From Tropicimonas sediminicola (GTDB lineage: Bacteria; Pseudomonadota; Alphaproteobacteria; Rhodobacterales; Rhodobacteraceae): DNA of 64,000 bases. The stretch's first letter is position 1. Each line of letters begins with the position of its first letter. This document shows, in pieces, positions 42,051-53,565 of the stretch. The position numbers and the translations under genes are program-made. Under the pieces are notes generated by a model. That model did no database searches. It was not told the origin of the DNA and saw only the letters and a list, made by a program, of their open reading frames with translations. The stretch spans positions 682,001-746,000 of the forward strand of contig NZ_FZOY01000001.1 of the NCBI RefSeq assembly GCF_900188335.1. Direction: 5' to 3'.

Positions 42051-43298
42051 ATGCGCCGATATTCCGCCTTTGCCATCGCCCGCGAAGCGCTGCGTCACCA
42101 CCAGGGCTGGGAACGCGCCTGGCGCTCGCCCGAGCCCAAGAAGCGCTACAAGGTGATCGTGATCGGCGCCGGCGGCCACGGGCTGGCCACCGCCTATTAC
42201 CTCGGCAAGAACCACGGCATTCGCGACATCGCGGTGCTGGACAAGGGCTGGCTCGGCGGCGGCAACACCGGGCGCAACACCACGATCATCCGCTCCAACT
42301 ATCTGCAGGACCCGTCTGCGGCGATCTACGAAAAGGCCCGCAGCCTCTACGAAACCTTCAGTCTCGATCTGAACTACAACGGCATGTTCAGCCCGCGCGG
42401 CGTGCTGATGCTGGCGCAGACCCACCACGAGGTGCGCGGCTACCAGCGCACGGCCCATGCCAACGCGCTGCAAGGGGTCGAGACGGAGTTCGTCGGCCCC
42501 GAGCGGGTGAAGGAGATCGTGCCGATCATCAACATCGAGGGCCCGCGCTATCCCGTGCTCGGCGGGCTCTGGCAACCACGCGGCGGCACCGCCCGGCATG
42601 ACGCCATCGCCTGGGGTTATGCCCGAGCCTGTTCCGGCATGGGCATGGACATCATCCAGAAATGCGCGGTCACCGGTGTCCGTTCCGAGGGCGGCAAGGT
42701 CACGGGCGTCACCACCACCCGCGGCGATATCGACTGCGAGAAGCTCGCTATCGTGGTTGCCGGCCATTCCGGCCATCTCGCCGATATGGCGGGCTTCCGG
42801 CTGCCCATCGAATCCGTGGCGCTCCAGGCGCTGGTCTCCGAGCCGATCAAGCCCTGCATGGATTGCGTGGTCATGGCCAACACCGTGCACGGCTACATGA
42901 GCCAGTCCGACAAGGGCGAGATGGTGATTGGTGGCGGCGCCGACGGCCACAACAACTACACCCAGCGGGGCTCGTTCTTGCATGTCGAGGAAACCGTCCG
43001 CGCCCTCGTCGAGACCTTCCCGATGATCTCGCGGCTCAAGATGCTGCGCCAGTGGGGCGGCATCGTCGACATGACCGGCGACCGCTCCCCGATCCTGTCC
43101 AAGACCCCGCTCGGCAATTGTTTCATCAACTGCGGCTGGGGGACCGGCGGGTTCAAGGCGATCCCCGGTTCCGGCTGGGCGATGGCGGAACTCGTTGCCA
43201 AGGGAGAGCCCGGCCCGCTCGCCGCCGAGTTCGGCCTCGACCGCTTCCGCGAAGGCCGCTTCATCGACGAAAGCGTCGCCGCGGGGGTCGCGCACTGA
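42051..43298 (+). CDS. soxB: Sarcosine oxidase beta subunit, canonical copy
   Basis: 415 aa. FAD motif GAGGHGLATAYYLG (39-52), DKGWLGGGNTGRNTTIIRSNY, probable covalent-FMN His183 in ARHD, and the C-terminal NCGWGTGGFKAIPGSG typical of authentic heterotetrameric sarcosine oxidases. ATG 42051 follows GAGGA. First gene of soxB2-tfoX-like-soxD2-A2-G2. It oxidises sarcosine to glycine with transfer of the methyl to THF via SoxA. Clearly different from the 15.6-kb copy, so the two are old paralogues. Confidence 0.92.
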   Translation: MRRYSAFAIAREALRHHQGWERAWRSPEPKKRYKVIVIGAGGHGLATAYYLGKNHGIRDIAVLDKGWLGGGNTGRNTTIIRSNYLQDPSAAIYEKARSLYETFSLDLNYNGMFSPRGVLMLAQTHHEVRGYQRTAHANALQGVETEFVGPERVKEIVPIINIEGPRYPVLGGLWQPRGGTARHDAIAWGYARACSGMGMDIIQKCAVTGVRSEGGKVTGVTTTRGDIDCEKLAIVVAGHSGHLADMAGFRLPIESVALQALVSEPIKPCMDCVVMANTVHGYMSQSDKGEMVIGGGADGHNNYTQRGSFLHVEETVRALVETFPMISRLKMLRQWGGIVDMTGDRSPILSKTPLGNCFINCGWGTGGFKAIPGSGWAMAELVAKGEPGPLAAEFGLDRFREGRFIDESVAAGVAH

Positions 43299-43627
43299 TG
43301 GCCTTTTCGGAACTCAATGCCGAAACGATGCGCGAAGACCTCGGCTTCCAGCCGGGGCTCTCGGAGAAGCGCATGTTCGGCGGGATCGCGTTCATGCTCT
43401 ACGGCAACATGGTCTGCGGCGTGATCGGCGACGGCGGGATGTTCCGCGTGGGCAAAGACCGCGAGACCGAGGCCATTGAACTGGGCGCGCAGCCGCTCTC
43501 CTTCACCGGGCGCAAGATGGGCGGGATGGTCGAACTCGACCACGGGTCCTTCGAAGACGACGGCCTGCGGCGGTCCCTCGTGGAAATGTCGCTGTTGAAC
43601 GCTGCCAGCCTGCCGCCGAAAGGATGA
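43298..43627 (+). CDS. TfoX N-terminal-domain protein inserted in the sox operon
   Basis: 109 aa. The TfoX_N fold is recognisable from KRMFGGIAFMLYGNMVCGV, DGGMFRVGKDRE and FTGRKMGGMVEL. Its ATG overlaps the soxB2 stop (TGATG), and soxD2 starts 4 bp after its end, so it is fully built into the operon. TfoX_N proteins are small and of unclear biochemistry outside competence regulation. It lacks a TfoX C-terminal domain. A function tied to the oxidase is suggested only by position. Confidence 0.8.
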   Translation: MAFSELNAETMREDLGFQPGLSEKRMFGGIAFMLYGNMVCGVIGDGGMFRVGKDRETEAIELGAQPLSFTGRKMGGMVELDHGSFEDDGLRRSLVEMSLLNAASLPPKG

Positions 43628-43631
43628 TGAC

Positions 43632-43955
43632 ATGCTGATCCTGACCTGCCCGTACTGCGGCATCCGTTGCGATGAAACCGAGCTTGCTCCGGGCGGCGAG
43701 GCGCATCTCAAGCGCTTTGGCCCCGGCTCCACGGACGAGGCATTCGAAGCCTACCTGTTCGAGCGCGAAAACCCGATGGGCGTGCATTTCGAGCGTTGGC
43801 GCCATGCCTATGGCTGCGGCAGGTGGTTCCTGGCGGCGCGCGACACGGTCACGCTCGAGGTCTTCGGTACCTACAAGGCACAAATGCCCGAGCCGCCGGA
43901 GGAGATCGTCGCCGCGATCCGGGCGCGACGGCCCGAATGGGAGGGCCGGGCATGA
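43632..43955 (+). CDS. soxD: Sarcosine oxidase delta subunit, canonical zinc-binding copy
   Basis: 107 aa. All expected zinc ligands are present: Cys6 and Cys9 (TCPYCG), His58 and Cys62 (RHAYGC). The body (FERENPMGVHFERW) is typical SoxD. It is longer at the C-terminus than the 16.9-kb paralogue. It overlaps soxA2 by 4 bp (ATGA). The subunit stabilises the interface of the alpha and beta subunits. Confidence 0.92.
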   Translation: MLILTCPYCGIRCDETELAPGGEAHLKRFGPGSTDEAFEAYLFERENPMGVHFERWRHAYGCGRWFLAARDTVTLEVFGTYKAQMPEPPEEIVAAIRARRPEWEGRA

Positions 43956-46948
43956 GCATGCGTCTGGAGCAGGGCGGCCGGCTGATCGACCGGGACGCGC
44001 CACTCGATTTCACCTTCGACACCAACCCGATGCGCGGCCTCCGGGGCGACACGCTGGCCTCGGCGCTGCTCGCGAATGGCCAGATGCTGGTGAACCGGTC
44101 TTACAAGTACCACCGGCCCCGCGGCATCCTCGCCAGTGGACCGGAGGAGCCCAATGCGCTCGTCGGGCTGGGGCAGGGCGCTCGGTTCGAACCCGACCAG
44201 CGCGCCACGACGACCGAATTGTTCGACGGGCTCTCCGCGATGAGCCAGAATGCCTGGCCCACGCTCGGCTTCGACATGATGGCGGTGAACGGCTGGTTCA
44301 GTGGCATGATGCCGGCGGGCTTCTACTACAAGACCTTCACCTGGCCGCAGAGCTTCTGGAAGCACGTCTACGAGCCGGTGATCCGCGAGGCCGCTGCCTC
44401 CGGCCTGCCGCCCAAGGAAGCCGACGCCGACCGCTACGAGCATTTCTACGCATTCGTCGATGTGCTGATCGTGGGCGGCGGGATCGCCGGATTGCAGGCG
44501 GCGCTCGAGGCGGGCCGCTCCGGCGCGCGCGTGCTCCTGCTCGAACAGACCCCGCACTGGGGCGGTCGGGCGCCGGTGGATGGCGTGGAAATCGGCGGCA
44601 AGCCGGCGGATGCCTGGATTGGCGAGACCCTCGCGACGCTGGAGGCAATGGACAACGTCACCCTGCGGAACCGTTGCATGGGCGTCGGCGTGTACGATCA
44701 CGGCTTCGCACTCGGCTACGAGCGGCTGGCCGATCACACGCCCGGCGACGGGCAGCCGCGCCACCGGCTCTGGAAGATCCGGACCGGGCGCATCGTCACC
44801 GCGACGGGGGCAATCGAGCGGCCGCTGAGCTTTGCCGGCAACGATGTGCCGGGCGTCATGCTGGCCTCGGCCGTCCGCGACTATGTCGTGAACTATGGCG
44901 TCGCGCCGGGCCGCCGCACCGTGGTCGTGACCAATAACGACGATGCCTATCGCACCGCGCTGGCGCTCATCGATGCCGGGCTCGAGGTGCCTGTCATCAT
45001 CGATCCGCGCGAACGCAACGACGGCCCGCTCGCCCGCGAATGCATGCGCCGCGGTGTCCAGGTCGAAACCGGCGCGGCGGTGATGAAGGTCAAGGGCAGC
45101 AAGCGCGTCGAGGGCGTGATGCTGTGCCGGGCCAACGGCACGGGCGGCGCCGGGGCCGTGCTCGACTGCGACAGCGTCGCCATGTCGGGCGGTTGGTCGC
45201 CGGTGGTGCACCTCTGGTCCCATTGCGGCGGCAAGCTGCTCTGGTCGGACGAGCACGCCCATTTCTATCCCGACGATGCCCGCGCTCCCACCGGCGCCGA
45301 TGGCGCGGCCTTTGTCTCGACCGCTGGTGCGGCCTCGGGCTGCATGGCCTCCGGCGACGTGCTCAGGGACGCCGCCCGCAAGGGGGGCGCCGCTGTCGGC
45401 GCAGAGCCGGGTGAGGTTCCGCAGGCCAACGACATCGAGGAAGTGCCGATGCAGCCGGTCTGGGTCATGCCGACCAAGGCGCTGCCGGAACTTCGCTCCA
45501 AGATGTTCCTCGACTTCCAGAACGATGTGAAGGTCTCCGACGTGCAACTCGCGGCCCAGGAGGGCTACGAGAGCGTGGAGCTGACCAAGCGCTACACCAC
45601 GCTCGGCATGGCGAACGACCAGGGAAAACTGAGCAACATCAACGGGCTTGCGATCCTTGCTCAGTCGCTGGGTGAGGAGATCCCGCAGGTCGGCACCACC
45701 ACGTTCCGGCCGCCCTACCAGCCCATCTCCTTCGGGTCGATCGCGGGCGAGGCGCGCGGCGACATCTTCCAGCCGCTGCGCCGCACGCCGATGCACGATT
45801 GGCACGAGGCCAACGGCGCCTACATGGAGCCGGTCGGTCATTGGCGGCGGCCCTACTGCTATCCCAAGGCGGGCGAGAGCCACGCGGATGCCGTCGCGCG
45901 CGAGGTAACGGCGACCCGTACCTCGCTGGGGCTTCTGGATGCCTCGACCCTTGGCAAGATCCTCGTGAAGGGGCCGGATGCCGGGCGCTTCCTCGACATG
46001 CTCTACACCAACAAGATGTCGACGCTGAAACCGGGGCGCTGCCGCTACGGGCTCATGTGCAACGAGAACGGTTTCCTGATGGACGATGGCGTGGTGGCGC
46101 GGATCGACGAGGAGACCTTCCTCTGCCACACGACCTCCGGCGGTGCCGACCATATCCACGGCTGGATGGAGGACTGGCTGCAGTGCGAGTGGTGGGACTG
46201 GAAGGTCTATACCGCGAACCTGACGGAGCAATACGGTCAGATCGCCGTCGTCGGACCGAATGCGCGCAAGGTGCTCGAAAAGCTCGGCGGGCTCGATGTC
46301 TCGAAGGAGGCGCTGCCGTTCATGGCGTGGTCCGAGGGGGAGCTTGCGGGTATCCCGGTACGGGTGTTCCGGATCTCGTTCTCGGGCGAACTGAGCTACG
46401 AGATCGCGGTTCCCGCCGGACAGGCGCGCGCCCTCTGGGACAAGATCCTCGCGGCCGGCGGCAAGTTCGGCGTGACGCCCTACGGCACCGAAGCGCTGCA
46501 CGTGATGCGAGCCGAGAAGGGCTTCATCATGATCGGCGATGAAACCGATGGCACGGTGATCCCGCAGGATCTCGGTCTCGACTGGGCGATCTCGAAGAAG
46601 AAGGACGACTACCTCGGCAAGCGTGCGCAGGAGCGGGCCCACATGGTTCGGCCGGATCGCTGGAAACTGGTGGGGCTGGAAACGCTCGACGGGTCTGTCC
46701 TGCCGGACGGGATCTACGCACTGGGCGAGGGCATGAATGCAAACGGGCAGCGGGTCACCATCGGACGGGTCACCTCGACCTACCATTCGCCGACGCTCGG
46801 GCGCGGCATCGCAATGGGGCTTGTCGAACACGGGCCGGACCGGATGGGCGAGGTGTTGAAATTCGGCAAGACCGACGGCGGCACGATCGAGGCCCGTATC
46901 GTGAGCCCGGTCTTTTACGATCCGGAAGGGGAGAAGCAGGATGTCTGA
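43952..46948 (+). CDS. soxA: Sarcosine oxidase alpha subunit, canonical copy
   Basis: 998 aa. It has the N-terminal ferredoxin-like domain (GDTLASALLANG, SYKYHRPRG), a dinucleotide fold (VGGGIAGLQAAL near 171), a central region with SGGWSP, and a C-terminal GcvT-like THF domain (from about 610; SFSGELSYEIAVPA, YGTEALHVMRAEKG). It channels the sarcosine methyl to 5,10-methylene-THF. ATG 43952 overlaps soxD2. It overlaps soxG2 by 8 bp, as in the first operon. Confidence 0.92.
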   Translation: MSMRLEQGGRLIDRDAPLDFTFDTNPMRGLRGDTLASALLANGQMLVNRSYKYHRPRGILASGPEEPNALVGLGQGARFEPDQRATTTELFDGLSAMSQNAWPTLGFDMMAVNGWFSGMMPAGFYYKTFTWPQSFWKHVYEPVIREAAASGLPPKEADADRYEHFYAFVDVLIVGGGIAGLQAALEAGRSGARVLLLEQTPHWGGRAPVDGVEIGGKPADAWIGETLATLEAMDNVTLRNRCMGVGVYDHGFALGYERLADHTPGDGQPRHRLWKIRTGRIVTATGAIERPLSFAGNDVPGVMLASAVRDYVVNYGVAPGRRTVVVTNNDDAYRTALALIDAGLEVPVIIDPRERNDGPLARECMRRGVQVETGAAVMKVKGSKRVEGVMLCRANGTGGAGAVLDCDSVAMSGGWSPVVHLWSHCGGKLLWSDEHAHFYPDDARAPTGADGAAFVSTAGAASGCMASGDVLRDAARKGGAAVGAEPGEVPQANDIEEVPMQPVWVMPTKALPELRSKMFLDFQNDVKVSDVQLAAQEGYESVELTKRYTTLGMANDQGKLSNINGLAILAQSLGEEIPQVGTTTFRPPYQPISFGSIAGEARGDIFQPLRRTPMHDWHEANGAYMEPVGHWRRPYCYPKAGESHADAVAREVTATRTSLGLLDASTLGKILVKGPDAGRFLDMLYTNKMSTLKPGRCRYGLMCNENGFLMDDGVVARIDEETFLCHTTSGGADHIHGWMEDWLQCEWWDWKVYTANLTEQYGQIAVVGPNARKVLEKLGGLDVSKEALPFMAWSEGELAGIPVRVFRISFSGELSYEIAVPAGQARALWDKILAAGGKFGVTPYGTEALHVMRAEKGFIMIGDETDGTVIPQDLGLDWAISKKKDDYLGKRAQERAHMVRPDRWKLVGLETLDGSVLPDGIYALGEGMNANGQRVTIGRVTSTYHSPTLGRGIAMGLVEHGPDRMGEVLKFGKTDGGTIEARIVSPVFYDPEGEKQDV

Positions 46949-47507
46949 CGCAGCACGTGTGACCGCCGTGGCGTCCGGCGCGCCCGCAGCACAGGTAGAT
47001 TGTTTGCCGATCCAGGGCATGATCACGCTGCGCGGTCAGCCCACCGAGGTAGCGGAGGCGATCCGGGCCGCCACCGGCTGCGGACTGCCCGAGCAACGCG
47101 GGATCGTCTTCGAAGGAGAACGCGGGGTGGCGTGGATGTCGCCGGACGAGTGGCTCCTTCTGATGCCGCAGGAAATGGTTTCGGAATGCCTCGCCACTCT
47201 GGCGGGGGAGCTGTCCAGCAGCCATCATCTGGCCGTCGAGGTCTCGGATGCTCGCGCGATGTTTCGCATCTCCGGAACAGGCGCGCGCGAGGCGCTGGCC
47301 CGGGTTTGCCCGGTGGACCTGTCTCCCGCGACCTTCGCCGCCGGAGAAATCCGCCGGACCCGGCTGGCCCAGGTGCCGGCGGCCTTCTGGATCGGTGCAG
47401 ACGGCGCGTTCCGGCTGGTCTGCTTCCGATCGGTCGCGCGCTACGCTCAGGACGTCCTGGAAAACGCCGCGAGTGGTGCGCCTGTCGGGTTCTTCCCCGA
47501 GGGCTGA
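46941..47507 (+). CDS. soxG: Sarcosine oxidase gamma subunit, canonical copy
   Basis: 188 aa. SoxG-like GcvT fold with WMSPDEWLLLMP (about 65-76) and DARAMFRISG. ATG 46941 lies within the soxA2 end behind GGGGAG. Last gene of the operon; unlike the first oxidase operon it is not followed by folD or purU, so those at 20.6-22.5 kb may serve both. Confidence 0.9.
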   Translation: MSDAARVTAVASGAPAAQVDCLPIQGMITLRGQPTEVAEAIRAATGCGLPEQRGIVFEGERGVAWMSPDEWLLLMPQEMVSECLATLAGELSSSHHLAVEVSDARAMFRISGTGAREALARVCPVDLSPATFAAGEIRRTRLAQVPAAFWIGADGAFRLVCFRSVARYAQDVLENAASGAPVGFFPEG

Positions 47508-47665: not shown

Positions 47666-48787
47666 ATGCTGGACATGACGGACGATGAGCAAATGGCTGG
47701 GCAACAGGGGCAGGGCACCTGCCTGTTCGAGGCTGCGGGGTTGCGGCTTCTGCACCGGCCGGCGCCGTCGGACCATGCCCTGGTGCTCTTCGAGGACGCG
47801 CCCGAGGCCGGGCGACTGCGCCCCGGCTGGCTGACCGGCCCGGGGGGCGAGGCGGTGGATCTCTACCGCGTCGTGCCGCAGCGGGCGGGGCTTTTCCCGG
47901 CCGACGAGATGCAGGCCCTCTGCGGAGTGCTTGCCGGCACCAACGCGCGCCCGGCAATTGCCATCGGCGCTGGCCTTGGTGGTCAGGCTGCCCTGCGCCA
48001 CGGGCAGGCGGCAGGCTGTGCCATCGCGCTGGCCTTTTCGCCGATGGGCGTCGCGCCCGCCGGCCATCCGACTGTGGCTGACATTCCGGAGCAGGATATC
48101 GCGCCGCTGGCGATGGTCGCCTTCGATCCCAAGCGCCGGCCGGACGCGCTGCAGGCCGAGGCGCTGCGCCTGCTGGACGGCGTACATGTGCTGCCGCTGC
48201 CGCATATGGGCCATCGCACCGAGCGCACCCTGATCGGTGACCATGTCGCCCGAGAGGTATTTGCCGCCGCCCTGCGGGGCGATGCCGGCGAGGTTGCGCG
48301 CCTTCTGCGCCACAACCGCTCCCATGACGACGGGTTCCTGTCGAGTCTGTCGCTGGCCTGTTCGGAGCGCGGGCATTACCGCTGGGCCGCCGACATCGCG
48401 GAACAGGGCGACCCCGCCCGCCGGCACATGCCGGACCTCGCGATGGCGCGGGCTGAGGCGCAGGCCGGGCTCGGACGGCCGCTGGAGGCTGTCGAGACCC
48501 TCGAGGGGCTGGTCGTCTCCGCCCCGAGGAGTCCGCGCTACTGGGGCCTTCTGATCGACCGCTACGAGGCGATGGGCCAGGACGTGGCGGTTGCAGAACT
48601 GCTTGAACTTGCGCTCGCCTACACCGAGAATTTCAACTTCTGCGCGCGGCTGATCCGCAAGCTCTCCGGCATGAACGGTCCGGCCCGCGCGCAGGCCAGT
48701 GCGCTGGCCGACATGGCGCGGCAGCACTGGCCTGACCGTGGCGGGCAGATCGACCGTCTTGCCAAGGGGCTGGCGGGCATCGCCTGA
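47666..48787 (+). CDS. Unassigned protein: degenerate alpha/beta-hydrolase-like domain plus helical repeats
   Basis: 373 aa, no signal peptide. Residues about 35-205 look like an alpha/beta-hydrolase core. The nucleophile elbow reads GAGLGG (101-106), with Gly103 where the catalytic Ser of GHSLGG would be, so it is probably not an active esterase. Residues about 210-373 are helical with TPR-like spacing (AQAGLGRPLEAVETLEGLV, YEAMGQ). It precedes a GSCFA-family gene on the same strand by 144 bp. GAGGA precedes ATG 47666. I do not recognise a named family. A scaffold or substrate-recognition role is a guess. Confidence 0.7.
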   Translation: MLDMTDDEQMAGQQGQGTCLFEAAGLRLLHRPAPSDHALVLFEDAPEAGRLRPGWLTGPGGEAVDLYRVVPQRAGLFPADEMQALCGVLAGTNARPAIAIGAGLGGQAALRHGQAAGCAIALAFSPMGVAPAGHPTVADIPEQDIAPLAMVAFDPKRRPDALQAEALRLLDGVHVLPLPHMGHRTERTLIGDHVAREVFAAALRGDAGEVARLLRHNRSHDDGFLSSLSLACSERGHYRWAADIAEQGDPARRHMPDLAMARAEAQAGLGRPLEAVETLEGLVVSAPRSPRYWGLLIDRYEAMGQDVAVAELLELALAYTENFNFCARLIRKLSGMNGPARAQASALADMARQHWPDRGGQIDRLAKGLAGIA

Positions 48788-48931
48788 CACGGCTCTCCCG
48801 GCCTTCTGCAGGTGCCGGGCGGGGTGCTCCCGGCGCCAACGGGGCCGGCGCGAGGGAGCCACTTACGAGATACCACCGGCCCCGGTAACGAGTAGCGGCA
48901 TGGCACGCGCCGCGCGGAAAGGCAGACAGAG

Positions 48932-50293
48932 ATGTCGGACAAGTCACTCGAGCGGCGTTCCGCGATGGACGCCTACAAGCTGGCTTCGCAGAACCCCTTG
49001 CGCCGCTATCCCTCGCCCGAGAAGGACGGGGACAGGCTCTATCCGCTCGCGACGCCGGTCCTGACGCCGTCCTTCACGATGAGCCGCGAGGATACCGTTT
49101 TCACCATCGGCTCCTGTTTCGCGCGCAATGTCGAGGCGGCGCTGATCAATGCCGGCATCAACGTCACCAGCCGCGATTTCGACCTTGGCCCTATTGGCGA
49201 GAGCCTCGGTTTCGCGGGCAACTTCTTCAACAAGTACTCGATCCACTCCGTCATCAACGAACTCCGCTGGGCGATGGACCGCGAGAGCTTCCCCGGGGAG
49301 GAGATCCTCTATCCGTTGGGGAAAGGCGAGGAGAAGTTCTGCGACCTGCAGCTCGGTGCCGCCAAGCTGGAATTCCCCGTCGACGAGATCCTCGAATTCC
49401 GCCACCGATTTCTCGACGTGATGGCCCGCGCGGCGGAAGCCGACGTGGTGATCGTCACTCTGGGCTATGTCGAGGTATGGTACGACACCAAGCTCGGCAT
49501 CTACCTGAACGTCGCCCCGCCGGCGCAGCTCGCCCGCAGGGACCCCGACAGGTTCGAGTTCCGGGTGCTCAGCTACGAGGAGGTGCTGGAGGGGCTGCGG
49601 GAGCTCTACCGGATCCTGAACCGCTACCGCACCAAGCCGCTGCGCATGCTGCTGACGGTCTCGCCGGTGCCGATGCTCTCCACCTTCCGCGACATGGATG
49701 TGCTGGTGGCCAACACCTATTCCAAGTCCGTCCAACGGGCCGCCATCGACGTGTTCATCGCCGAGACGGAGGGGGTGGACTACTTCCCGTCCTACGAGTT
49801 CGTGGTGCTGAGCGACCCTCGCGTCGCCTGGTCGCGCGGGGATTATCGCCATGTCTCCGCCGATCTCGTGGCGCGGATCATGCAGTCGGTCCTTGCCCGC
49901 TACGTTCCGGGCTCGGGGGAAGAGGCGCCGGAGGCGGGTGGCGGGATGACCGCCGAGGCGCTGGAGGCCTCGGTCCGCATGACCATGAAGCTCAAGGAAT
50001 ACGAGAGCGCCCTGGCGATGATGGCCCAGAACGAGGAGATCGTGGCATCAAGCGCCGTGCTTCAGCAATTGCGGGGCGTGGCGCTGAGTTCGCTGGACCG
50101 CTTCGAGGAGGCGTTCGACGCCATGGCGGCCTCGCATGCGCTGGCCCCCGGCAATGCCGCGCCGCTCGAGCGCCAGATCGCGTGGTGCCGCAAGCTCGAC
50201 CGCAAGGAGGTCGCGCGCGAGTTGCTCAAGACCCATGTCGCGGCCTTCCCGGACCGGGCCGATTTCCGCGCGGGCCTGACCTGGCTCGACTGA
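48932..50293 (+). CDS. GSCFA-domain protein (SGNH/GDSL-like) with C-terminal repeats
   Basis: 453 aa. The family signature GSCFA stands at 60-64, followed by the NFFNKYS and TLGYVEVWYD blocks, LTVSPVP and a terminal HVSADLV block, matching the SGNH-type fold (Ser61 would be the nucleophile). From about 345 the helices look TPR-like. GSCFA proteins are mostly uncharacterised and often near polysaccharide genes. There is no signal peptide, so it is cytoplasmic. It sits 19 bp before an FkbH-like gene, and both carry SGNH-type regions, suggesting work on a common acylated or glycosylated substrate. That is inference. Confidence 0.82.
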   Translation: MSDKSLERRSAMDAYKLASQNPLRRYPSPEKDGDRLYPLATPVLTPSFTMSREDTVFTIGSCFARNVEAALINAGINVTSRDFDLGPIGESLGFAGNFFNKYSIHSVINELRWAMDRESFPGEEILYPLGKGEEKFCDLQLGAAKLEFPVDEILEFRHRFLDVMARAAEADVVIVTLGYVEVWYDTKLGIYLNVAPPAQLARRDPDRFEFRVLSYEEVLEGLRELYRILNRYRTKPLRMLLTVSPVPMLSTFRDMDVLVANTYSKSVQRAAIDVFIAETEGVDYFPSYEFVVLSDPRVAWSRGDYRHVSADLVARIMQSVLARYVPGSGEEAPEAGGGMTAEALEASVRMTMKLKEYESALAMMAQNEEIVASSAVLQQLRGVALSSLDRFEEAFDAMAASHALAPGNAAPLERQIAWCRKLDRKEVARELLKTHVAAFPDRADFRAGLTWLD

Positions 50294-50312
50294 GCGGGGG
50301 CGACATGACAGG

Positions 50313-52067
50313 ATGGACGCCATGACCGCCTACGACCTGAGCACAATCGGCAAGACCGTCAAGCTGGTGGTCTGGGATCTCGACGAGACCTTCTGGTCCG
50401 GTACGCTCTCGGAAGGCGGGATCACGCCGCGGCCCGGAAACATCGCGCTGGTCCGGGAGCTGGCGGAGCGCGGCATCGTCTCCTCGATCTGCTCAAAGAA
50501 CGATTTCGCGCAGGCGAAGGCGCAGCTTGAAGCCCTTGGCGTTTGGGAATATTTCGTCTTTCCGCACATCGACTGGACGCCGAAGGGGCAGGCCATTGCG
50601 GGGATGATCGCGGACATGGGCCTGCGCGACGAGAACGTGCTGTTCCTCGACGACAATCCCATGAACCTCGAGGAAGCGAAGTTCTTCAACGAGCGGATCA
50701 TGTGCGTCGACGGCCGGCTCGATCTCGCGCCGCTGCGGGACCTGCCACAGCTTGCCGGCAAGGACGACCGCGGACTGAGCCGTCTGAAACAGTACAAGGT
50801 CGGCGAGGCCAAGCATCGCGAACGCACGCAGACCGCGCTGTCCAACGAGGATTTCCTGCGCCAATCCGATATACGGCTGCGCCATGTCTACGATATCGAG
50901 GCGCATTGGGAACGGGTGCTGGAACTGATCAACCGCACCAACCAGCTCAACTTCACCAAGAAGCGGGTCGAGACGCCGGAGGCGGAGGCCGAGCTGCGCG
51001 AGATGCTTCGGATGCCCGGCGCCCATGCCGCGCTGATCGAGGTCGCGGACCGGTTCGGCGATTACGGCATGGTGGGCTTCTACCTGATGGTCAAACGCTC
51101 TTCCGGCGCACGGCTCGAGCATTTCGCCTTTTCCTGCCGAACGCTCAACATGGGGATCGAGCAATATGTCTATGACCGGCTGGAGCGCCCGGCGCTGACG
51201 ATCGCCCAGCCCGTCGCCAACGGGCTCGACCGTTTCGAGGCCGTGGACTGGGTGCGCGAGGATGCCGGCGGCGCGGCGGGAGCGGAGGCGCCGGACCGGC
51301 GGCTTTGCCTCGTGGGCGGGTGCGACCTGCTGCAGATGTCGTTCTACTGCGGCTCGAACCGGGACGAATTCGTCAACACGGTGCGAAACGGGATGGTCGT
51401 GCGCTACGACGACGTGGGCTTCATCTTGAACGACCGCTCCGACCCTTCAATCGAGCGCTTCCGCAGCCGGCTGGAGATGTGGAGCCATGCCGAGATGCTG
51501 GCCTTCGACGGGGCCCTGGCGGAGGCCGACGTGGTGATCCTCTCGCTCTACCAATCGGCGGCGGGGCAGAATTTCTTCACCTTCGGCGGCACGGAATTCG
51601 GCGGGCGGCACCTTGTGCATGTCCCGGCGCAGGCGATGCGCACGGTGCTCGCCGGTCCCAACGCGGCCTGGTTCGCCAAGAATTTCTACTACCGGCGCTA
51701 CGGGCTGGAAGAGAAGCTGGCGCTGGTGCGGCAGGCCTGCGAGCGGGTGCTGTCGCAGGTGCGCCCCGGCACGCCCGTCGTGCTGATCGCGGCAAGCGAG
51801 GCGGGGGAGCGCTCCGAGCGCTCCCTTCCGGTCCGGCAGGCGTTCAATGCCCTTTGCCGGGAGGTGGCGACGTCGTGGGAGAGCGCGGTGCTCGCCGACC
51901 CGGCGGAGATCATGGCGCCCGAGGACGTGGTCGATGCCGACCATTTCACGCGGATCGGCTATTTCAAGCTCGCGCAGTTCATCAACGAGACCGCGGCGGC
52001 GTTCTCTGGTTCGGATCAAACGGTAAAGGACGTTCGGGATGCGCAGGATCTTCAACAGGCTGTATGA
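50313..52067 (+). CDS. FkbH-like protein: HAD-IIIC phosphatase, GNAT-like and SGNH-like domains
   Basis: 584 aa. N-terminal HAD-IIIC domain with Asp22-x-Asp24 (VWDLDETFWSG) and LFLDDNPMNLEEA. A middle GNAT-like part follows (about 190-290; LNFTKKR, FGDYGMVGFYL, FSCRTLNMGIEQYV). The C-terminal SGNH-like part begins with LVGGCDLLQM and ends with DADHFTRIGYFKLA, the Asp-x-x-His block. FkbH proteins load a glyceryl-type unit from 1,3-bisphosphoglycerate onto a carrier protein, but family members outside polyketide loci are little studied. The start might also be ATG 50322. It overlaps the next gene by 29 bp in another frame. Confidence 0.8.
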   Translation: MDAMTAYDLSTIGKTVKLVVWDLDETFWSGTLSEGGITPRPGNIALVRELAERGIVSSICSKNDFAQAKAQLEALGVWEYFVFPHIDWTPKGQAIAGMIADMGLRDENVLFLDDNPMNLEEAKFFNERIMCVDGRLDLAPLRDLPQLAGKDDRGLSRLKQYKVGEAKHRERTQTALSNEDFLRQSDIRLRHVYDIEAHWERVLELINRTNQLNFTKKRVETPEAEAELREMLRMPGAHAALIEVADRFGDYGMVGFYLMVKRSSGARLEHFAFSCRTLNMGIEQYVYDRLERPALTIAQPVANGLDRFEAVDWVREDAGGAAGAEAPDRRLCLVGGCDLLQMSFYCGSNRDEFVNTVRNGMVVRYDDVGFILNDRSDPSIERFRSRLEMWSHAEMLAFDGALAEADVVILSLYQSAAGQNFFTFGGTEFGGRHLVHVPAQAMRTVLAGPNAAWFAKNFYYRRYGLEEKLALVRQACERVLSQVRPGTPVVLIAASEAGERSERSLPVRQAFNALCREVATSWESAVLADPAEIMAPEDVVDADHFTRIGYFKLAQFINETAAAFSGSDQTVKDVRDAQDLQQAV

Positions 52068-52812
52068 CGAAGACCCCTATCTCGACGCCCCGCTGGCGGA
52101 TGTCGAGGTCGACATGCAGGGGTGGGGATCCACCCATTTCTTCTTTCGCGGCATCATCGAACACCTAAAACCTTCGCTGATTGTCGAGGTCGGCAGCTGG
52201 AAAGGGCGCTCGGCGCTGCACATGGCCGACCTCTGCAAGGCCGCGGGCATCAAGAATCTCGAGATCTGCTGTGTCGACACCTGGCTCGGCACTTCGGGTA
52301 TCTGGGCGCGCAAGGGGCAGGTGGAGGAAGAGCTCAAGCTGAAGAACGGCTGGCCGATGCTCTACTTCACCTTCATGAAGAACGTGGTCGAGGCCGGCCA
52401 TCAGGACGTGATAACGCCGCTGCCCTTGCCCTCGGACATGGGCGCGCAGGTGCTGAAGCGTATCCGCGCACGCCCGGACCTGATCTACATCGACGCCGCG
52501 CACGATTATGACAACTGCCTGCGGGACCTGCGGAACTATTTCGAGCTGCTGGACGACAACGGCATCCTGCTCGGCGACGATTACGAGACCATCGACGGCG
52601 TGACCGAGGCCGCGCAGGAATTTGCCCGCGAGAAGGAACTGATCCTGGTGGGCACGCGCAGCAAGTTCGTGCTGTCGAAGAACGTCGAGCACGTGCATGC
52701 CATGCAAGCGCTGCTGGCCGAGATCGATGCGCGCCGCGCGCGGGTGGCCGAGGCCAAGGCGCGTGCCGCAGAGGAAGCATCTGCGGGCGAGGCGGACGGC
52801 GAAGAGGCCTGA
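52039..52812 (+). CDS. Class I SAM-dependent methyltransferase (Methyltransf_24/CmcI-like)
   Basis: 257 aa. SAM motif I is IVEVGSWKGRSAL (about 50-62), then CVDTWLG, the acidic DLIYIDAAHDYDN and LLGDDYETIDGV. The tail after 225 is a charged Ala/Arg/Glu helix. CmcI-type enzymes methylate hydroxyl groups of sugars or antibiotic precursors. AAGGA precedes ATG 52039, 29 bp inside the FkbH-like gene, so the last three genes are translationally linked. Target unknown; a glycan or carrier-bound substrate would fit the neighbours. Confidence 0.82.
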   Translation: MRRIFNRLYDEDPYLDAPLADVEVDMQGWGSTHFFFRGIIEHLKPSLIVEVGSWKGRSALHMADLCKAAGIKNLEICCVDTWLGTSGIWARKGQVEEELKLKNGWPMLYFTFMKNVVEAGHQDVITPLPLPSDMGAQVLKRIRARPDLIYIDAAHDYDNCLRDLRNYFELLDDNGILLGDDYETIDGVTEAAQEFAREKELILVGTRSKFVLSKNVEHVHAMQALLAEIDARRARVAEAKARAAEEASAGEADGEEA

Positions 52813-52965: not shown

Positions 52966-53565
52966 ATGGCTTTCGAACTCCCCGATCTTCCCTACGCCCA
53001 CGATGCACTCGCCGCGAAGGGCATGAGCCAGGAGACCCTCGAGTATCACCACGACCTGCACCACAAGGCCTATGTCGACAACGGCAACAAGCTGATCGCC
53101 GGCACCGAGTGGGAGGGCAAGACCCTCGAAGAGATCATCGTCGGCACCTACGACAAGGGCGCCGTCGCGCAGAACGGAATCTTCAACAACATCTCGCAGC
53201 TCTGGAACCACAACCAGTTCTGGGAAATGATGGGCCCCGGCGATACCGGCATGCCCGGTGAGCTGGAAAAGGCCCTCGTCGAGAGCTTCGGCTCGGTCGA
53301 CGAGTTCAAGTCCCAGTTCTCCGCCGCCGGCGCCGGCCAGTTCGGCTCGGGCTGGGCCTGGCTGGTCAAGGACACCGACGGCTCGCTGAAGGTCACCAAG
53401 ACCGAGAACGGCGTGAACCCGCTCTGCTTCGGCCAGACCGCGCTGCTGGGCTGCGACGTGTGGGAGCATTCCTACTACATTGACTTCCGCAACAAGCGCC
53501 CGGCCTACCTGACCAACTTCCTCGACAACCTGGTCAACTGGGAGAACGTCGCCAGCCGTATGTAA
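52966..53565 (+). CDS. sodB: Superoxide dismutase, Fe/Mn family
   Basis: 199 aa. Metal ligands lie in LEYHHDLHHKAYV, ISQLWNHNQFW and the terminal GCDVWEHSYYIDFRNKR (Asp and His). Gly/Ala patterns and the Gln-lacking GAGQFGSGW fit the iron or cambialistic bacterial type. It dismutates superoxide in the cytoplasm. It has its own terminator and is a monocistronic unit. Confidence 0.93.
   Translation: MAFELPDLPYAHDALAAKGMSQETLEYHHDLHHKAYVDNGNKLIAGTEWEGKTLEEIIVGTYDKGAVAQNGIFNNISQLWNHNQFWEMMGPGDTGMPGELEKALVESFGSVDEFKSQFSAAGAGQFGSGWAWLVKDTDGSLKVTKTENGVNPLCFGQTALLGCDVWEHSYYIDFRNKRPAYLTNFLDNLVNWENVASRM

What the first reader, a model, noticed from the sequence alone, without database searches (positions are those of the whole stretch)
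47666..52812. Unassigned four-gene cluster: pseudo-hydrolase with repeats, GSCFA, FkbH-like and methyltransferase
The last three genes are coupled (19-bp gap and 29-bp overlap). Two proteins carry SGNH-type regions, one adds a HAD-IIIC and a GNAT-like domain, and the last is a CmcI-type methyltransferase. No glycosyltransferase, polyketide synthase or carrier protein is adjacent. This resembles a modification system for a cell-surface or secreted molecule that I cannot match to a described pathway.
Basis: partly seen in the sequence, partly recalled or inferred. Interest (0 to 1): 0.8.

Follow-up and report, generated by a model that had tools for sequence, protein, structure and literature searches.

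The report
Swappable sugar-coat modification gene cassette
Four neighbouring genes of a marine bacterium look like one version of a small, swappable cassette whose relatives sit beside sugar-transfer genes, so they probably decorate a cell-surface sugar polymer, perhaps with a three-carbon acid made by an unusual enzyme; this is inferred from sequence only.

Summary
The order HYD-GSCFA-FkbH-methyltransferase is kept in three Tropicimonas genomes. No known capsule or polyketide locus is attached, but relatives show what the cassette belongs to. Of 394 family genomes, 17 carry a full-length GSCFA orthologue. A divergent GT61 glycosyltransferase gene adjoins it in 10 of 17, a GT2_4 gene lies within two genes in 3, and sodB is within 2.8 kb in 13. 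HYD is fused to GT2_4 elsewhere. The congener L033 still has a GT2_4 gene beside an active-looking HYD; the window and T. marinistellae lack both the gene and the HYD serine. FkbH keeps its HAD motifs and ends in an SGNH-like domain whose nucleophile place holds cysteine in 55 of 55 aligned sequences. Best reading: a cytosolic system that makes a glyceryl-type acyl group, probably O-methylated, and puts it on a surface glycan. The glycan link is fairly supported; the chemistry is inferred. New variant of a known kind.

The parts
47666..48787 (+). HYD: alpha/beta-hydrolase-like protein with TPR-like C-terminus, 373 aa; catalytic serine replaced by Gly103 (47972-47974), His183 kept
   Evidence: alignment of 11 homologues; weak TPR matches below cut-off; homologue fused to GT2_4 in other genomes
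48932..50293 (+). GSCFA protein, 453 aa: SGNH-like domain with GSC motif (Ser61 49112-49114, Cys62 49115-49117) and C-terminal TPR domain (residues 335-453); an in-frame ATG at 48965 is an alternative start
50313..52067 (+). FkbH-type protein, 584 aa: HAD domain (Asp22, Asp24), FkbH middle domain with Cys275 (51135-51137), C-terminal SGNH-like domain with Cys337 (51321-51323) and His544 (51942-51944)
   Evidence: TIGR01686 above cut-off; AF2 model mean pLDDT 91.4; Cys275 and Cys337 in 55 of 55, His544 in 53 of 55 aligned sequences; profile match to PAF-acetylhydrolase
52039..52812 (+). SAM-dependent methyltransferase of the Methyltransf_24 family, 257 aa, overlapping FkbH by 29 bp
   Evidence: PF13578 61.5 bits, cut-off 26.3
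52966..53565 (+). sodB-like gene (name recalled), right border of the cassette in this family
   Evidence: within 2.8 kb of GSCFA in 13 of 17 genomes
43952..47507 (+). soxA- and soxG-like genes (names recalled), left border of the cassette
   Evidence: soxA-like gene on the other side of GSCFA in 10 of 17 genomes

Best explanation
The locus is one version of an exchangeable glycan-decoration cassette held between the sox-like and sod-like genes of Rhodobacteraceae. Proposed mechanism (inferred): FkbH takes the glyceryl group of 1,3-bisphosphoglycerate onto a cysteine (Cys275 is the candidate), its HAD domain removes the phosphate, and the group passes to Cys337 of its own C-terminal SGNH-like domain, which stands in for a separate carrier protein. 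The methyltransferase O-methylates the acyl group or its sugar acceptor. GSCFA, an SGNH-fold protein with a TPR binding tail, transfers the acyl group to a sugar hydroxyl. HYD has lost its serine here and is kept as a binding or scaffold subunit; elsewhere it is an active-looking hydrolase beside or fused to a glycosyltransferase. No signal peptide or membrane helix was seen, so the glycan would be modified in the cytosol before export. Shown: gene order, families, motif conservation, glycosyltransferase linkage in relatives, serine loss. Inferred: substrate, order of steps, product.
For: Order kept in three Tropicimonas. Glycosyltransferase gene near GSCFA in 13 of 17 genomes with a full-length orthologue (10 GT61, 3 GT2_4), at one chromosomal site in 13 of 17. 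HYD-GT2_4 fusions, one directly upstream of GSCFA in G351. FkbH near HYD in 10 of the 80 kept loci. GSCFA-FkbH pair beside capsule-export-like genes in L058. FkbH and GSCFA co-occur: 5 of 8 FkbH genomes against 19 of 386 others, p 2.8e-4 by genus. Methyltransferases of other families directly beside FkbH in L048 and L050. HAD and cysteine sites invariant apart from gaps. FkbH proteins make glyceryl-ACP (PMC7489565, passages); di-O-methylglyceric acid decorates a Campylobacter flagellar sugar (PMC3958885, passage). No hydrophobic stretch of transmembrane strength (crude scan).
Against: No activity or glycan is shown. The window's own cassette has no glycosyltransferase. FkbH of G035 adjoins a polyketide synthase gene, with GSCFA and the methyltransferase 36-39 kb away. 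GSCFA proteins also occur in detoxin-type NRPS/PKS clusters (PMC12828459, PMC9503745, passages). Several FkbH orthologues (Novosphingobium and others) have no glycan gene beside them by eye. HYD relatives are common, 313 of 394 genomes. The block I half of the SGNH domain was not matched by profile, and FkbH-C to GSCFA homology was not significant.
Confidence: 0.5

Rival explanations
1. A small-molecule or lipid pathway: FkbH loads glyceryl on a carrier protein encoded elsewhere, the methyltransferase methylates it, and the product feeds a polyketide-, peptide- or lipid-like compound rather than a glycan.
For: FkbH of G035 adjoins a sulfotransferase and a 2439-aa polyketide synthase, with what looks by eye like a second synthase and a carrier protein further on. 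FkbH plus O-methyltransferase is the core of methoxymalonyl-ACP operons (PMC7489565, PMC3679948, passages). GSCFA occurs in detoxin-type clusters.
Against: No synthase, carrier or dehydrogenase gene between 47.5 and 53.0 kb. GSCFA is near a glycosyltransferase gene in 13 of 17 genomes. Carrier proteins elsewhere in the genome were not searched.
Confidence: 0.2
2. The same acyl chemistry but on a glycoprotein such as flagellin rather than on a polysaccharide.
For: Campylobacter flagellin carries a di-O-methylglyceric acid derivative of pseudaminic acid (PMC3958885, passage), and its flagellar glycan region holds an fkbH-domain gene, cj1302 (PMC7099621, passage).
Against: No flagellar or protein-glycosylation gene was noted in the loci read by eye; L058 and L037 point to polysaccharide export. 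No test for flagellin was made.
Confidence: 0.15
3. A decaying cassette: after loss of the glycosyltransferase gene the remaining genes have no product in this lineage.
For: The glycosyltransferase and the HYD serine are present in L033 and absent in the window genome and T. marinistellae. HYD is less conserved than its neighbours, 60% against 79-82% identity to T. marinistellae.
Against: All four frames are open; dN/dS against T. marinistellae is about 0.12-0.17 for GSCFA, FkbH and methyltransferase and about 0.20 for HYD (from dN and dS, dS 0.8-1.5, near saturation).
Confidence: 0.1

Closest known systems
FkbH-like glyceryl transferase/phosphatases of polyketide clusters (TIGR01686; Mad7, Mad14, BafAIV)
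   Same: HAD motifs and FkbH middle domain; proposed use of 1,3-bisphosphoglycerate; methyltransferase gene next to it
   Different: An additional C-terminal SGNH-like domain with invariant cysteine; BafAIV is 367 aa, this protein 584; no carrier protein or dehydrogenase gene in the cluster
GSCFA family PF08885 (SGNH clan), including PipG and MirD of detoxin-type clusters
   Same: Clear family member by score
   Different: Carries a TPR tail and sits with glycosyltransferase, FkbH or HYD genes; no member had a known function in the 2022 review
Methoxymalonyl-ACP operon (fkbGHIJK type)
   Same: FkbH plus O-methyltransferase
   Different: The two dehydrogenases and the carrier protein are missing from the cluster
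SGNH acyltransferases of exported polysaccharides (AlgX, PatB and others listed in PMC9487903)
   Same: SGNH fold, proposed acylation of a polymer
   Different: Those work outside the cytosol with serine (recalled); here no signal peptide is seen and the FkbH domain has cysteine

Membership tests
FkbH (TIGR01686) | Model score above the curated cut-off | tested here: met
   153.4 bits against 146.65
FkbH (TIGR01686) | HAD catalytic residues | tested here: met
   D22 in 53 and D24 in 54 of 55 with only gaps otherwise; S61, K91, D113, D114 in 55 of 55
FkbH of polyketide clusters | Partner carrier protein | tested here: inconclusive
   None between 47.5 and 53.0 kb; the rest of the genome was not searched
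Methoxymalonyl-ACP operon | Dehydrogenase and carrier genes in the operon | tested here: not met
   The cluster holds only the four genes
GSCFA (PF08885) | Model score above the curated cut-off | tested here: met
   149.6 bits against 25
SGNH superfamily, FkbH C-terminal domain | Block V His in D-x-x-H context | tested here: met
   H544 in 53 of 55, D541 in 27 of 55; profile aligns the PAF-acetylhydrolase His region
SGNH superfamily, FkbH C-terminal domain | Block I serine | tested here: not met
   The G-x-Ser place reads G-G-Cys; Cys337 in 55 of 55
Alpha/beta hydrolase (active) | Nucleophile in the G-x-S-x-G elbow | tested here: not met
   Gly103; serine in 9 of 11 homologues
CmcI/rhamnosyl O-methyltransferase (PF04989) | Model score above the curated cut-off | tested here: not met
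   22.7 bits against 23.2
Methyltransf_24 (PF13578) | Model score above the curated cut-off | tested here: met
   61.5 bits against 26.3
Known capsule locus (PF05159 type) | Capsule genes linked to the cluster | tested here: not met
   PF05159 matches are on contig C14 only, the window is on C17
Glycan-acylation system | Acyl product on a surface glycan | not testable with these tools
   Needs biochemistry

The most novel reading that the evidence does not exclude
The HAD-FkbH-SGNH(Cys) protein is a carrier-free glyceryl transferase: invariant cysteines pass a glyceryl group from 1,3-bisphosphoglycerate to a built-in cysteine SGNH domain, diverting glycolysis straight into cell-surface glycan acylation, with GSCFA as the transferase (a first function for that family) and a serine-less hydrolase kept as scaffold.
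Probability: 0.25. Interest if true: 0.75.

Novelty: new variant of a known kind. Interest (0 to 1): 0.5.

Why it matters
GSCFA was one of five SGNH families without a known function in a 2022 review (PMC9487903, passages). A constant GSCFA gene with exchangeable glycosyltransferase, methyltransferase and acyl-making partners at one chromosomal site gives a natural series for finding its substrate. The cysteine of the FkbH C-terminal domain, present in 55 of 55 aligned sequences from several phyla, points to an acyl-transfer chemistry that one purified protein could test.

Tried and rejected
CmcI label: rejected on score. Capsule locus near the window: not found, capsule genes are on another contig. 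'All four genes always travel together': not so; only the three Tropicimonas have all four. FkbH C-terminus against GSCFA by profile: no significant match, probability 2.6%. The idea that Cys62 rather than Ser61 is GSCFA's nucleophile stays open: the homologue in L058 reads GSGFS. Foldseek and VIA on the FkbH model were filled by HAD hits; an SGNH acyltransferase, 8zbc, is in the Foldseek list at E 1.1e-4 but its aligned range is not given. In VIA on the GSCFA model the 50 rows shown are TPR-type matches to the C-terminus, so its SGNH half was barely tested there. 3slr is not among the matches of profile A6 at E <= 5. Promoter and terminator scan: nothing above shuffles. HYD linkage needed calibration, since the family is in 313 of 394 genomes. 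In one search eight HYD-like loci were opened: four are fused to glycosyltransferase-like regions (L161, L164, L170, L172; Pfam run on three, L164 with scores below cut-off), one stands alone (L158), and for three (L156, L165, L166) my script printed a wrong frame and they were dropped. Papers: FkbH with polysaccharide 3 papers, with flagellin 1, with capsul* 3, with O-antigen 0; from the listings, and from passages of PMC7099621, I saw none on this architecture. FkbH/SGNH/GDSL: 224 papers held two of the three terms, the 10 listed hold no FkbH. GSCFA: 7 papers, three opened at passages, PMC13298647 not opened. OzmB: 2 papers listed, not opened. Tropicimonas with polysaccharide and glycosyltransferase: 2 listed, not opened. 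Only one library was searched, so novelty in print is not claimed.
Full report
What is there. The window lies in a 5.17-Mb genome (G000, contig C17). Four + strand ORFs fill the interval between a sarcosine-oxidase-like operon (to 47507) and a superoxide-dismutase-like gene (from 52966); these border names are recalled from their sequences and were not scanned. HYD has only weak TPR matches; GSCFA matches PF08885; the third protein is FkbH; the fourth is Methyltransf_24, while CmcI misses its cut-off.

Conservation of the cluster. In the FkbH scan of named genomes 269 places encoded a relative and the best 80 were kept. The full order is present in L033 and in L034 (T. marinistellae), as in the window. 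FkbH lies within 2 kb of a HYD-like gene in eight further loci (seven Paracoccus, one Aliiroseovarius), and FkbH with GSCFA is in Loktanella salsilacus (L041) and an Acetobacteraceae MAG (L058). So HYD is near FkbH in 10 of the 80 kept loci, 10 of the 22 whose titles I place in Rhodobacterales, several of those 22 being cut by contig ends; GSCFA is near in 4 of 80; the window's methyltransferase type in 2 of 80. The HYD profile contains these very members, so detection by it is circular; the window's HYD alone found L033, L034, L035, L036 and L043. HYD-like genes are common (313 of 394 family genomes), but one to a few copies in about 4 Mb would rarely land within 2 kb of a given gene by chance (inference). 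The window's methyltransferase type was found in 4 of 120 family genomes (G000, G007, G035, G083), three of which also have a full-length FkbH.

GSCFA and glycosyltransferases. Of 394 family genomes, 24 have GSCFA at E <= 1e-70 and 17 at E <= 1e-200. In those 17: a divergent GT61 gene adjoins GSCFA in 10 (G050, G107, G018, G034, G163, G132, G291, G202, G319, G348); GT2_4 is within two genes in 3 (G007; G351, fused to HYD and directly upstream; G392); none was found in G000, G006 and G035; G165 has a 680-aa protein with an HVRRGD motif that I recall from fucosyltransferases, but Pfam gave only TPR. The GT61 profile was built from four of the ten; Pfam itself was run on one (46.6 bits, cut-off 27). 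sodB lies within 2.8 kb of GSCFA in 13 of 17 and soxA on the other side in 10 of 17; G348 and G392 are short contigs. FkbM-type methyltransferases stand in the same interval in G351 (69 bits) and, below cut-off, in G392 (17.5 bits, cut-off 22.7). I read this as one chromosomal site with a constant GSCFA gene and exchangeable partners.

HYD. Nine of 11 aligned members have the G-x-S-x-G elbow, the congener L033 among them; the window has Gly103, T. marinistellae Ala, and T. marinistellae also changed the His. L033 has a divergent GT2_4/GT92 gene next to HYD (72.2 and 48.8 bits). The window genome has only a weak match to it, 30% over 126 aa, T. marinistellae none at E <= 1e-5. Serine loss and glycosyltransferase loss thus go together in three genomes, which may be a single event. 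HYD is fused to GT2_4 in L161 (G351) and L172 and to a glycosyltransferase-like region in L164, there with scores below cut-off. Against T. marinistellae HYD has dN 0.31 and dS 1.5: apparently kept, though dS is near saturation.

Other contexts of FkbH. L058: GSCFA, FkbH, a sulfotransferase, and KpsE/VexD-, KpsM/VexB- and VexC-like genes, the export genes all below NCBIfam cut-offs. L037: KpsE-like gene, UDP-galactopyranose mutase, a GT2 and an ABC ATPase; the first three gene clusters recur in L038-L040. L048 and L050 have a methyltransferase directly beside FkbH, and L045 one nearby; its homologue in L044 had no match above cut-off. The L050 FkbH frame is split in two. G035: FkbH next to a sulfotransferase and a 2439-aa polyketide synthase, with GSCFA and the methyltransferase 36-39 kb away among transporter genes; further ORFs there look by eye like a second synthase and a carrier protein. 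FkbH orthologues in Novosphingobium and others show no glycan gene beside them by eye. FkbH is rare, 8 of 394. It co-occurs with GSCFA (E <= 1e-70) in 5 of those 8 against 19 of the other 386; by genus p 2.8e-4. This treats genera as independent, and in G392 both genes end at contig edges.

Mechanism and doubts. The glycan link rests on neighbours, not on biochemistry. Known FkbH enzymes are proposed to make glyceryl-ACP (PMC7489565, passages; FkbH disruption in PMC3679948, passages), and a methylated glyceric acid is a known surface-sugar decoration (PMC3958885, passage). The cluster has no carrier protein, and the C-terminal domain with its invariant cysteine is the natural candidate for that role; this is a hypothesis. 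The strongest contrary facts are the polyketide synthase beside FkbH in G035, GSCFA in detoxin-type clusters (PMC12828459, PMC9503745, passages), and the absence of a glycosyltransferase from the window's own cassette.

Noticed in passing
G000:C17:114265-115074 (L117; L119:9709-11483): A second GSCFA gene of this genome (180 bits), followed by an ORF starting with a GDSH-type motif that looks like another SGNH protein.
   Followed up: partly
G000:C17:758786-759613: A second HYD-like gene, about 13 kb beyond the window end; HYD-like genes occur in 313 of 394 family genomes, some in ORFs of 700-900 codons fused to glycosyltransferases.
   Followed up: partly
L058:5075-6307: GSCFA homologue in which the motif reads GSGFS, so the cysteine is not universal while the serine stays.
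   Followed up: no
L021 and L121 (G035): FkbH orthologue beside a sulfotransferase and a large polyketide synthase; possible carrier protein and alpha/beta hydrolase downstream by eye.
   Followed up: partly
window 43298-43627: Small ORF inside the sox-like operon that looks like a TfoX N-terminal protein (by eye, unscanned), without a match in the compared loci.
   Followed up: no
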